Source: Roseburia sp.
GTDB taxonomy: Bacteria; Bacillota; Clostridia; Lachnospirales; Lachnospiraceae
Direction of reading: 5' to 3'
Assembly (NCBI GenBank): GCA_022771695.1
Contig: JALEKJ010000057.1
Coordinates: forward strand, 1-64,000
DNA: 64,000 nt
Positions 47,298 to 49,853 of this stretch are shown here, in pieces; position 1 is the first letter of the stretch; each line of letters opens with the position of its first letter. The translations under genes and the position numbers were made by a program. The notes below the pieces were generated by a model. It was not told the DNA's origin. It saw only the letters and a program-made list of their open reading frames with translations, and made no database searches.

Positions 47298-48116
47298 ATG
47301 AATCAGAAAGCAGTATTTTTGGACATAGACGGAACCATGGTGGATGCAAACGGACAGATTCCGGCATCGACCAAGGAGGCGATAAAACAGGCAAAGGCAA
47401 ATGGACACAAGATGGTGGTCTGCAGCGGCAGAAGCCGTTTTCAGATCTATGATGAGTTGTTAGAACTTGGATTCTCCGGAATTGTCGGGGCAGCAGGCGC
47501 ATTTGTAATCTCCGAGGGAGAGGAAATCTATCATGCCTATATTGATGAGGAGCACAGAAAAAGCAGCTATGAATATCTGGAGAAGAATGGTTTTTTCTAT
47601 TGTTATCAGGCAGACGACGGCGTTGTGCTAAATCAGCGGAGCTGTGAGGGAATGATTAAAATTTACCGGGATATGGGCATGAGCGAGAGCCGCCTAAACC
47701 GTTTGATTGGGAAAATGCACCTGACCGAAGAGCCTTGGAAGAATGAGCGTAATGAGAAAATTATCTATTACAATGCTCCTTTTCCGGTAGAGCGTGTACA
47801 TGCCGATATGGAGCCGTATTTTGATGCGGTTGCCATCAGTTTAGACGGCATGGATGAATATGCCGGAGAGATTGGCATCAATGGTATCAATAAGGCGACC
47901 GGTATGGAAATCTATCTAAAGCATGTCGGGATTCGGCGAGAGGACTGCATTGCCATTGGCGACGGACCAAACGATCTTCAGATGATGGAGTATGCGGGAA
48001 TTAGTGTCGCGATGGGTAATGCAAGAGACGATGTGAAAGAGCGCGCGGATATGGTGACGGATGACATCGGAGAAGACGGACTTTACAAAGCATTTGTGCG
48101 ACTGAATCTGATATGA
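47298..48116 (+). CDS. HAD-superfamily hydrolase, Cof type
   Basis: 272 aa. HAD motif I FLDIDGTMV with D9 and D11, motif II CSGRSR, and the C-terminal GDGPNDLQMMEYAGISVAMGNA (motifs III/IV) give the Cof/IIB subclass with a large cap domain (~85-185). It dephosphorylates sugar phosphates or related metabolites in the cytoplasm, usually with broad specificity. It overlaps closely with the next gene (17 bases apart). The ATG is preceded only by a weak AGAAAGAA site. Confidence 0.9.
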   Translation: MNQKAVFLDIDGTMVDANGQIPASTKEAIKQAKANGHKMVVCSGRSRFQIYDELLELGFSGIVGAAGAFVISEGEEIYHAYIDEEHRKSSYEYLEKNGFFYCYQADDGVVLNQRSCEGMIKIYRDMGMSESRLNRLIGKMHLTEEPWKNERNEKIIYYNAPFPVERVHADMEPYFDAVAISLDGMDEYAGEIGINGINKATGMEIYLKHVGIRREDCIAIGDGPNDLQMMEYAGISVAMGNARDDVKERADMVTDDIGEDGLYKAFVRLNLI

Positions 48117-48133
48117 GAATGGAGGATGGTGCC

Positions 48134-48988
48134 ATGGAAAAAAGAAAATTCCGTGCATTGGTTACGATGACCTTTGCTGTGGCGCTTATCACTTCGGCGA
48201 TGCTCGGAGGAAGTACCCAATGCGCGGAACTTGCACTGCTTCAGGACGCCATGCGGGAATTGCGGCGTACGGACAATCTGGAATTTTCCTATGAGAATAC
48301 GATTGCCAGTGCGGGCGTTGCAAAGAGTGAAAAAATTGTTGTCTGGGCAGACCAACTGACCGGACGCTGGGTGAGCGAACATTACACGACAGACGAGGAC
48401 GGAACAAGACTTTACTTAAAGCAGTTCTGTGATGGCTTGCATGTATATCAGTATGTTGAGTGGACCGGAGAATGGGAACTGGCGGAATCAGAAAGTACGG
48501 ATATTCCATATCTTGCCCGAGTCATCGACCTGCCATATGACAGTGATGATATTATGAATATCAGACTGCGACAAAAGGTAGATGTACAGGAGCTTTCTTA
48601 TGAGTTTACACCGGAATATGTGGATGGGCAGAATCGCAAACGACAGGAAACATTAGAAGAATACTATGCAAACTATCAGGTGATGCAGACGTCAAACGAA
48701 GGTGCAGAGAGAGTAGAACTGGCAGTCGCACAGTATCGGCATACGAGAGAGGAGAACACCTCTGTCGTCTACCGCATTGACTCAGCGGGAGTCATGCGAA
48801 GCTTAAACTGCTCGATGACATTGGTGTCACCGGAAGTTGTCTATGATAAAGATGGACAGCCAACGCTTGGGGAAGAGTATGAGAGCTCCTATGAGATTCA
48901 GATAGAGGTAAGCCGTTATAACCAGGACGGTGTCCTCAATAAAATTGAGCAGTGCAGCAATGAAGTATCCTATTACCAATATGAATAA
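48134..48988 (+). CDS. secreted protein of unknown function
   Basis: 284 aa from the ATG at 48134, which has GGAGGA seven bases upstream. Residues 1-31 look like a signal peptide (RKFRALVTMTFAVALITSAM then a likely cut after TQCA). The mature part is Glu/Thr/Tyr-rich, with repeated short beta-type segments and no motif I can name; no cell-wall anchor or lipobox. It follows the HAD gene directly and ends just before the structured element at 48994. Function unknown. Confidence 0.7.
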   Translation: MEKRKFRALVTMTFAVALITSAMLGGSTQCAELALLQDAMRELRRTDNLEFSYENTIASAGVAKSEKIVVWADQLTGRWVSEHYTTDEDGTRLYLKQFCDGLHVYQYVEWTGEWELAESESTDIPYLARVIDLPYDSDDIMNIRLRQKVDVQELSYEFTPEYVDGQNRKRQETLEEYYANYQVMQTSNEGAERVELAVAQYRHTREENTSVVYRIDSAGVMRSLNCSMTLVSPEVVYDKDGQPTLGEEYESSYEIQIEVSRYNQDGVLNKIEQCSNEVSYYQYE

Positions 48989-48993
48989 GAACG

Positions 48994-49158
48994 AAATCCG
49001 AGAATTTTAGAACCCGCTTCTGAAATTATGTTCCGTGTCTCTTTCGCCGAAAGAACATCCCGCGGGGTGTACGCCTCAACCGGAGGGTTGAGGGTTGCGT
49101 CCGAAAAGACATGGATAAAAACATCTTTCAGAAGCGGGTTTGTAAAAATTCCGGATTT
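48994..49158. ncRNA. candidate structured RNA or repeat element
   Basis: A 32-base arm (48994-49025) pairs with 49126-49158; the inner 15 bases (AACCCGCTTCTGAAA / TTTCAGAAGCGGGTT) are perfect. Inside lie ATGTT/AACAT, CCGTGTCT/AGACATGG, CTTTC-GCC-GAAAG and CCTCAACC-GGAG-GGTTGAGG (49075-49094), giving a multibranched fold with GC-rich helices. It sits between two converging genes and has no plausible gene of its own. Strand unknown. It could be a non-coding RNA or a dispersed intergenic repeat. Confidence 0.5.
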
Positions 49159-49253
49159 TTGTGAGATGATTTTGAAATTTTGTTTTCACCGGAAATGTGA
49201 TATGACATAACCTCTCATAATAAAAATTATCTGCATCCGGGATATCGTTCTTG

Positions 49254-49853
49254 TTATATAGTGGTATAGGGAGCAAGTTCGAGTCTCACGAAGTAGCCGC
49301 GACTATTGTGGCATACCGGGCACTCTTCGGGAACGGATTTGCCGCGGTAGATGTGTCCGCATTCTAGGCACATCCATGCAGTCTCCACATCGGAGACAAA
49401 CAGTTTGTTCTGTTCTAACAGGTCGGCAAAGAGACCGAAGCGGTCACCGTGCGTCTTCTCAATCTGTGCTATCATCTGGAAGGAGGCGGCTGCTTTCTGG
49501 AAGCCCTCCTCCTTTGCTTTCTCGGCAAAATGAAGATATACGTCATCATGCTCCTCGTACTCATTGTGCTGTGCAAAGCGCAACAGCTTCGCGACATCCT
49601 GACTGATGTCAACAGGATAAGCACCATCTATTTGGATATTTTCGCCGGAAAGCTCTGCCAGATGGTTGTAAAAAATTTCGGCGTGTTCTTTTTCCTGATT
49701 TGCGGTAAACGCAAAGACTGCCTCAATAACAGGAAGATTCTGCTTCTTTGCGACTCCGGCAGCGATGGTGTAGCGGTTTCTTGCCTGACTTTCGCCGGCG
49801 AATGCCCGCATCAGATTTTCTTTGGTAACACTGTTCTTAAATTCAACAGACAT
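49254..49853 (-). CDS. rbr: rubrerythrin
   Basis: 199 aa. N-terminal ferritin-like diiron domain with the Glu/His ligands in LMRAFAGESQARNRYT, EKEHAEIFYNHL and IEKTHGDRF, then a C-terminal rubredoxin domain with CLECGHIY and CPVCHN. It reduces hydrogen peroxide in the cytoplasm of anaerobes, taking electrons through the rubredoxin iron. AAGGAGAA precedes the ATG. Monocistronic on the minus strand, 61 bases downstream of the ferredoxin oxidoreductase gene. Confidence 0.95.
   Translation of the reverse strand: MSVEFKNSVTKENLMRAFAGESQARNRYTIAAGVAKKQNLPVIEAVFAFTANQEKEHAEIFYNHLAELSGENIQIDGAYPVDISQDVAKLLRFAQHNEYEEHDDVYLHFAEKAKEEGFQKAAASFQMIAQIEKTHGDRFGLFADLLEQNKLFVSDVETAWMCLECGHIYRGKSVPEECPVCHNSRGYFVRLELAPYTTI

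What the first reader, a model, noticed from the sequence alone, without database searches (positions are those of the whole stretch)
48994..49158. Multibranched ~165-nt structured element of unknown identity
Seen: a ~32-bp closing stem (15 bp perfect) around at least four further helices, including CCTCAACC-GGAG-GGTTGAGG, in an intergenic gap between convergent genes. It matches none of the RNA classes I know (not 6S, SRP, RNase P, tmRNA or a riboswitch). It may be a new RNA or a dispersed repeat.
Basis: partly seen in the sequence, partly recalled or inferred. Interest (0 to 1): 0.7.

Follow-up and report, generated by a model that had tools for sequence, protein, structure and literature searches.

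The report
Mobile giant-hairpin repeat replacing terminators
The structured element is a decayed copy of an apparently undescribed family of roughly 600-base DNA palindromes that is scattered, sometimes in dozens of copies, through Roseburia-type gut bacteria and often sits where ordinary transcription terminators would be, rather than a new RNA gene.

Summary
The structure is real (z -7.8 and -8.5 on the two strands, 0 of 200 shuffles each), but the coordinates show only the middle of a larger, partly deleted unit (about 48976-49262). The same genome holds at least 13 further places; six are near full length, one imperfect palindrome of about 595-656 nt. A covariance model finds the family in 10 of 62 genomes of the genus (own included; at least 50 copies in one complete genome) and in other Lachnospiraceae. 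Rfam has no match. Covariation is massive: 42 of 46 apical pairs change on both sides. But it shows little strand preference: both strands fold about equally well and G.T is nearly as rare as A.C, whereas an RNase P control is strongly one-stranded. So the hairpin is kept as DNA, or as RNA of both strands, not as a one-strand RNA. Of 45 copies, 27 lie between convergent genes. Several relatives carry a short terminator-like hairpin at the window locus. One young 593-nt unit lies inside the tip of an older copy, with no visible target duplication. Best reading: a non-coding mobile palindrome that inserts into or replaces stem-loops and takes over termination; its transposase is unknown. My literature searches found no description.

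The parts
48976..49262 (.). whole remaining copy of the palindromic element in the window (boundaries approximate)
   Evidence: outer pairing with both gene ends in the fold of 48970-49269; right outer arm aligned with 12 other copies
48976..48994 (+). remnant of the left outer arm; pairs with about 49245-49262; overlaps the end of the upstream ORF (stop 48986-48988)
   Evidence: fold; most of the left outer arm is missing compared with other copies
   Evidence: 97% identical to copy L009 over query 11-83 of 48984-49180; 15 nt perfect arm
49026..49072 (+). inner left arm and tip, shared with other copies up to about 49066; the apical domain of full-length copies (about 240 nt between the two matching pieces in L009, 30 nt here) is missing
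49074..49093 (+). small hairpin CCTCAACC-GGAG-GGTTGAGG, an extra helix also present in copy L010 and absent from the five other full-length copies
49126..49158 (+). right middle arm, partner of 48994-49025
49159..49244 (+). right outer arm, left without a partner by loss of the left outer arm
   Evidence: 85%, 88% and 94% identical to the three best-matching own-genome copies over the right side; alignment
49245..49262 (+). outermost right end; overlaps the stop codon of the rubrerythrin gene (49254, - strand)

Best explanation
The element is a decayed copy of a family of non-coding, dispersed, mobile DNA palindromes (about 590-660 nt when intact) of Roseburia/Agathobacter-type Lachnospiraceae. 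SHOWN: a uniform unit with inverted, partly conserved ends (GGRRCTGYCGCAA-like in most genomes looked at); a full-length imperfect hairpin with conserved internal loops; dispersal; near strand symmetry of the pairing; location between genes, often convergent; short hairpins at the window locus in several relatives; a young unit inside the tip of an older one. INFERRED: an unidentified transposase or recombinase acting in trans recognises the ends and/or the hairpin and inserts it into stem-loops, commonly intrinsic terminators, replacing them without a target duplication, like the stem-loop-replacing transposition described for IS1272. The closing stem plus outward T-tracts then serves as a bidirectional terminator, so insertion is tolerated. 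Copies shrink by deletions that remove the tip, as in the window copy.
For: Copies: own genome 60 blastn matches at E<=10 with W (weak ones included) and 42 at E<=0.001 with copy L009. Of W and 12 other copies examined, 11 give a self-inverted match of 151-693 columns; W and L011 give none. Relatives: 10 of 62 genomes of the genus by covariance model, own included, one with at least 50, plus G020 by blastn. Uniform unit: 15 of 24 loci of one genome had both ends 500-720 nt apart, 590-595 nt in 12 and 623-625 in 3. End pattern: 60 matches, 0 for the reversed pattern. Covariation 0.689 against at most 0.095 for slid partners and 0.197 for shuffles. Strand symmetry: alifold energies +/- -221.5/-220.2, -149.7/-158.2, -175.2/-183.6, -125.2/-127.2, against RNase P -104.3/-69.6; G.T:A.C on pairs shared by both folds 17:16, 44:26, 18:12, 9:6, RNase P 25:4; well-paired RNase P columns 461:10. 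Context: 27 of 45 convergent, 14 tandem, 4 divergent, against 9 of 47 ORF pairs in the window; Fisher p 9e-5. Hairpins at the window locus in G071, G015, G072, G083 and G076. Nested young unit. Outward flanks T-rich for the first 3 bases (58-77% T, 26 ends). 21 intact units hold no ORF over 132 codons.
Against: No autonomous partner was found: IS1182 transposase (NF033551) has no match in 7 of 7 genomes of the genus tested; other transposase families were not searched. No target duplication was seen by eye, but boundaries are soft. Only 3 of 15 copies have flanks outside the ends that are clearly more palindromic than crossed flanks, although the mean is higher (5 of 5000 permutations as high), so stem-loop targeting is not general on this evidence. 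Of 12 window-locus regions fetched from congeners, 5 showed a short hairpin next to rubrerythrin, 5 others gave no self-inverted match and 2 gave matches not assigned to the site. The G076 hairpin has CTGYCGC-like arms and may be a stub of an element rather than an empty site. G.T stays somewhat commoner than A.C in each set. Termination is inferred from anatomy only; the simple terminator scan finds none at the window copy. The ends in genome G010 differ.
Confidence: 0.68

Rival explanations
1. A new class of large structured non-coding RNA, made from one strand and amplified in some genomes.
For: Massive covariation, 42 of 46 pairs changed on both sides; conserved internal-loop sequences such as AACTCG / CTCARACA and TTTTGYTC shared by many copies of different genomes; z below -7; G.T somewhat commoner than A.C in each set.
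Against: Both strands fold about equally well in 4 of 4 genomes compared, and the antisense is the better in three. G.T 93 against A.C 71 of 2527 cells, against 461:10 for RNase P of the same genus. At least 50 copies in one genome and no match in 52 of 62 genomes of the genus.
Confidence: 0.1
2. A host-serving bidirectional terminator, or RNase III substrate, between convergent genes: both transcripts fold, so both strands are under selection.
For: 27 of 45 copies convergent; T-rich outward flanks; strand symmetry is what selection on both transcripts would give.
Against: A 600-nt hairpin with conserved loops is far more than termination needs; several congeners have only a short hairpin at the same locus; 18 of 45 copies are not convergent; high copy number and nesting suggest mobility.
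Confidence: 0.15
3. The paired arms are kept mainly by mutation, not selection: template switching between the arms during replication makes changes in one arm appear in the other.
For: Outer arms match their own partner (mean 0.84 in G066, 0.74 in G010) better than the same arm of other copies (0.70, 0.64) although inner parts are 0.97 and 0.92 alike; L109/L111 own 0.84 and 0.91, between copies 0.41. Two-sided 663 against one-sided 52 changed cells in the apical domain, RNase P 151 against 119. Published mechanism (PMC8794818; abstract and opening of the introduction seen).
Against: Closely related copies differ mostly on one side (95-100% identical: 47 one-sided against 4 two-sided; 90-95%: 164 against 59), no more coupled than RNase P. 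Conserved unpaired loops survive, which needs selection.
Confidence: 0.07

Closest known systems
IS1272 (IS1182 family), stem-loop-replacing transposition (PMC5678879; abstract, passages and section 22 read)
   Same: inverted ends, inserts at inverted-repeat targets, replaces them, no target duplication
   Different: IS1272 codes for a transposase; this element is non-coding and palindromic throughout; no IS1182 transposase match in 7 of 7 genomes of the genus tested
Bacterial MITEs and intergenic palindromic repeats (ERIC, RUP, BOX, NEMIS recalled; RU-1 127 bp and RU-2 168 bp seen in the abstract start of PMC2759123 in listings)
   Same: non-coding, dispersed, intergenic, inverted ends, hairpin-forming
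   Different: several times longer, paired along its whole length with conserved internal loops and covarying helices; no target duplication seen; no parent transposon known
REPIN/RAYT hairpins (recalled; two papers seen only in the listing)
   Same: hairpin mobile repeats dependent on a protein in trans
   Different: REPINs are short paired REP hairpins (recalled); size and architecture differ; no RAYT search was done
Large structured RNAs such as HEARO, GOLLD, ROOL (recalled)
   Same: size, conserved loops, covariation
   Different: no Rfam match and little strand preference of pairing

Membership tests
MITE / intergenic palindromic repeat | many dispersed copies with terminal inverted repeats | tested here: met
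MITE / intergenic palindromic repeat | no protein coded | tested here: met
   longest ORF 54-132 codons in 21 intact units of two genomes, at varying places and strands; the 418-aa ORF in the 2.1-kb copy L114 is an IS110-family transposase, read as a nested insertion
MITE / intergenic palindromic repeat | target site duplication | tested here: inconclusive
   none visible by eye in G035, G066 and L084 flanks, but borders are soft
MITE / intergenic palindromic repeat | autonomous parent with the same ends | tested here: inconclusive
   only one transposase family searched, no match in 7 of 7 genomes of the genus
Stem-loop-replacing element (IS1272 type) | target is a stem-loop that disappears on insertion | tested here: inconclusive
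   5 of 12 congener regions show a short hairpin at the window locus; nested insertion in a hairpin tip; only 3 of 15 copies have clearly palindromic flanks
IS1182 family | IS1182 transposase | tested here: not met
   0 of 7 genomes of the genus; G403 (other genus) has 5 matches, all below the cut-off
Structured non-coding RNA family | covarying secondary structure | tested here: met
   (alignment fitted to the model)
Structured non-coding RNA family | pairing specific for one strand (G.U tolerated, A.C not) | tested here: not met
   a mild excess of G.T remains
Structured non-coding RNA family | transcript | not testable with these tools
   no RNA-seq on hand
Any Rfam family | match at gathering score | tested here: not met
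   (window and 12 copies)

The most novel reading that the evidence does not exclude
A protein-free mobile element whose whole body is one large folded DNA hairpin with conserved loops. The folded single strand, not only its ends, is what an unidentified host or mobile-element recombinase recognises. It targets other hairpins (terminators and its own kind), and its arms are renewed from one another, making it a structure-encoded selfish DNA distinct from MITEs and REPINs.
Probability: 0.25. Interest if true: 0.85.

Novelty: new variant of a known kind. Interest (0 to 1): 0.62.

Why it matters
It adds an apparently undescribed repeat family to prominent gut bacteria, in one complete genome with at least 50 copies. 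It gives a natural set of 600-nt hairpins in which DNA-level and RNA-level causes of covariation can be separated: covariation alone would have named this an RNA. It offers a testable case of mobile DNA that uses terminators as landing sites and becomes the terminator.

Tried and rejected
Known RNA classes: rejected by Rfam. Phage or plasmid origin: no blastn match to L009:290-880 in either collection; the pattern scan of viral contigs gave 3 stretches, none palindromic. IS1182 parent: no match in the genus. IS110 transposase of L114 as parent: set aside as a nested insertion seen in one copy. Element ends as a common terminator motif: the exact hairpin CTGTCGCA(0-30)TGCGACAG occurs at one place in each of 3 of 15 genomes. 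Neighbour genes as a clue: 88 ORFs flanking 44 copies scanned, diverse families; only the first 25 of 134 families were shown, none of these a transposase. A hand-made terminator finder on the window told nothing. Simultaneous arm changes at short distance: tested and not supported. Second locus for empty sites (L006 region): left and right neighbours were not found side by side in the matches listed, so it told nothing. Pattern scan of genome contigs: 70 stretches, 19 of them in one MAG (JAGANQ); I examined 25 of the 70 (16 of the 19) plus 3 of 3 viral. Of 17 JAGANQ matches 13 gave a self-inverted match; 2 of the 4 without are cut short by the end of the stretch. Of 13 other matches 2 (Lachnospiraceae) were palindromic, 1 weakly so and 10 not, as chance matches would be. 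Weak own-genome hits L021 and L022 showed no palindrome and were dropped.

Errors and limits of mine: the first RNase P control mixed strands, because these loci are not turned; it is replaced. In one search copy L109 was shown reversed. In one search, 8 of 10, 4 of 7 and 9 of 20 copies were dropped for partial cores; one search used 4 of 7 and 7 of 7. Two reverse-strand rows of A4 were left out of my own counts (57 rows) but are (59 rows). In one search the ORF rule (at least 90 codons) left an ORF overlapping copy L164 unused; without L164 as convergent the count is 26 of 45 (Fisher p 2e-4); that ORF has no Pfam match.

Full report
OBSERVATION. The region folds far better than shuffles on both strands and lies between convergent genes. 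Rfam 15 has no match at gathering score in the window region or in 12 other copies; permissive matches are far below threshold.

A REPEAT FAMILY. A blastn search of the window's own genome (3.28 Mb, 69 contigs) with 48984-49180 gave 60 matches at E<=10, many of them half-copies and weak ones. With full copy L009 it gave 42 matches at E<=0.001. I examined W and 12 other copies; a further short copy lies on contig C66 (not fetched). Six copies (L009, L010, L012, L013, L015, L016) are near full length, palindromic over 595-656 nt (self-inverted alignments of 611-693 columns). L014, L017, L018, L019 and L020 are shorter; L011 and W show no self-inverted match at that setting. L018 and L020 share the same tip deletion (by eye). 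W is most like L009 and L010: it carries the CCTCAACC hairpin that among the six full copies only L010 has, lacks the apical domain, and has lost most of the left outer arm.

DISTRIBUTION. A covariance model of the apical domain from 6 copies (R1) matched 10 of 62 genomes of the genus, own included: at least 50 copies in G035 (only 50 candidates are scored), 15 in G066, 10 in G076, 8 in G013, 7 each in G010 and G071, 6 in the own genome, 3 in G081 and 1 each in G061 and G072. G020 has a copy by blastn, at the place where the window's genome has L018 (flanks compared by eye). In a draw of 392 genomes of the order only the own genome and G403 matched. A further Lachnospiraceae MAG (JAGANQ) accounts for 19 of the 70 stretches.

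STRUCTURE AND COVARIATION. The 6 full cores give 178 consensus pairs, 55 with a kept two-sided change. Over 59 distinct apical rows, 93.7% of cells are paired, 42 of 46 pairs show two-sided changes, and the covariation score is 0.689, against 0.197 for shuffles and at most 0.095 for slid partners. The alignment was fitted to the model, which favours this, but the gap is very large. Between the varying helices lie conserved unpaired stretches (CTAA/AAG, CACARA, AACTCG, CTCARACA, TTTTGYTC).

STRAND TEST. A one-strand RNA tolerates G.U but not A.C. RNase P from 30 loci of the genus (29 distinct rows) shows 461 G.U against 10 A.C among 2576 cells and folds at -104.3 (sense) and -69.6 (antisense) kcal/mol. 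The element shows 93 G.T against 71 A.C among 2527 cells; after removing poorly paired columns 84 against 37 on one strand and 71 against 57 read on the other. On pairs shared by both strand folds the counts are 17:16, 44:26, 18:12 and 9:6 in four genomes, with near-equal energies of the two strands; RNase P gives 25:4, and only 31 of its 91 sense pairs are shared, against 162 of 178, 117 of 127, 131 of 154 and 87 of 131 for the element. A mild excess of G.T remains. The pairing is therefore kept mainly at the level of DNA, or of both transcripts.

ARM COUPLING, BOTH WAYS. In G066 and G010 the outer arms match their own partner better (0.84, 0.74) than the same arm of other copies (0.70, 0.64), although inner parts are 0.97 and 0.92 alike (searches show the alignments). 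The clearest case is L109 and L111: own arms 0.84 and 0.91, between copies 0.41, cores 0.95; in G035 the difference is small, 0.76 against 0.69. Against arm-to-arm copying in the core, close copies in G035 differ mostly on one side (47 against 4 at 95-100% identity; 164 against 59 at 90-95%), no more coupled than RNase P.

SITE. In 45 copies with longer flanks, nearest ORFs (at least 90 codons, a heuristic) are convergent in 27 (26 if L164 is doubted), tandem in 14 and divergent in 4; in the window 9 of 47 adjacent pairs are convergent. In many convergent copies the stop codons lie close to the element's ends. At the window locus G076 keeps both neighbours with 97 nt between the aligned flanks against 284 nt in the window, holding one short hairpin. 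G071 and G015 have GC-rich hairpins there, and G072 and G083 have hairpins next to the rubrerythrin end. Of the other seven regions fetched, five gave no self-inverted match and two gave matches that I did not assign to the site. The G076 hairpin contains CTGCCGC/GCGACAG, like the element's ends, so it may be a stub. In G035, 15 of 24 loci examined have both ends, 590-595 nt apart in 12 and 623-625 in 3, and outward flanks start T-rich, so the closing stem plus T-tract has terminator anatomy on both strands; the simple terminator scan finds none at the window copy.

MOBILITY. In L084 a young 593-nt unit, matched at many places of G035 over query positions of about 301-899, sits between two arms of an older copy that are 68-76% alike to other elements in the rows shown. 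No target duplication is visible there. Flanks outside the ends are clearly palindromic in 3 of 15 copies; the mean own-flank score is 8.2 against 6.4 for crossed flanks, and 5 of 5000 permutations are as high. This resembles IS1272, which replaces stem-loops without duplication (PMC5678879; abstract, passages and section 22 read). No IS1182 transposase match was found in 7 of 7 genomes of the genus with the element. Intact units hold no ORF over 132 codons (21 units). One 2.1-kb copy contains an IS110-family transposase as a nested insertion.

LITERATURE. I searched for a prior description (listings only, except PMC5678879 and PMC8794818, of which I saw the parts named) and found none; subscription journals and preprints are not held.

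CONCLUSION. The finding is a truncated member of a lineage-restricted family of giant mobile palindromes that often occupies terminator sites. That it is a dispersed DNA repeat is well supported. Stem-loop replacement and terminator function are the most likely mechanism but are inferred. A one-strand RNA is unlikely.

Noticed in passing
L114 (G035:C1:1987000-1991000), 1506-2762: An IS110-family transposase gene (PF01548, PF02371) lies inside one copy of the palindrome, which makes that copy 2.1 kb long.
   Followed up: partly
L084 (G035:C1:96450-97750): A young copy nested in the tip of an older copy gives a 1.17-kb double palindrome.
   Followed up: yes
window 48113-48988: The upstream neighbour is a 291-aa protein without a Pfam match at E 0.01; similar DNA lies next to rubrerythrin in at least G076, G071 and G015.
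   Followed up: partly
window 48970-48994 and 49245-49269: The ends of the two convergent genes, stop codons included, are complementary to each other and extend the element's closing stem.
   Followed up: no
G010 copies L107, L108, L129: Three of seven copies carry an extra roughly 80-nt inner hairpin absent from the other four; the ends in this genome also differ (GCGTTTGCG-like).
   Followed up: no
L243, L269, L276, L291 and other JAGANQ loci: A cervid-gut Lachnospiraceae MAG (RGIG8607) accounts for 19 of 70 pattern stretches, some of them near contig ends, as if the repeat broke the assembly.
   Followed up: no
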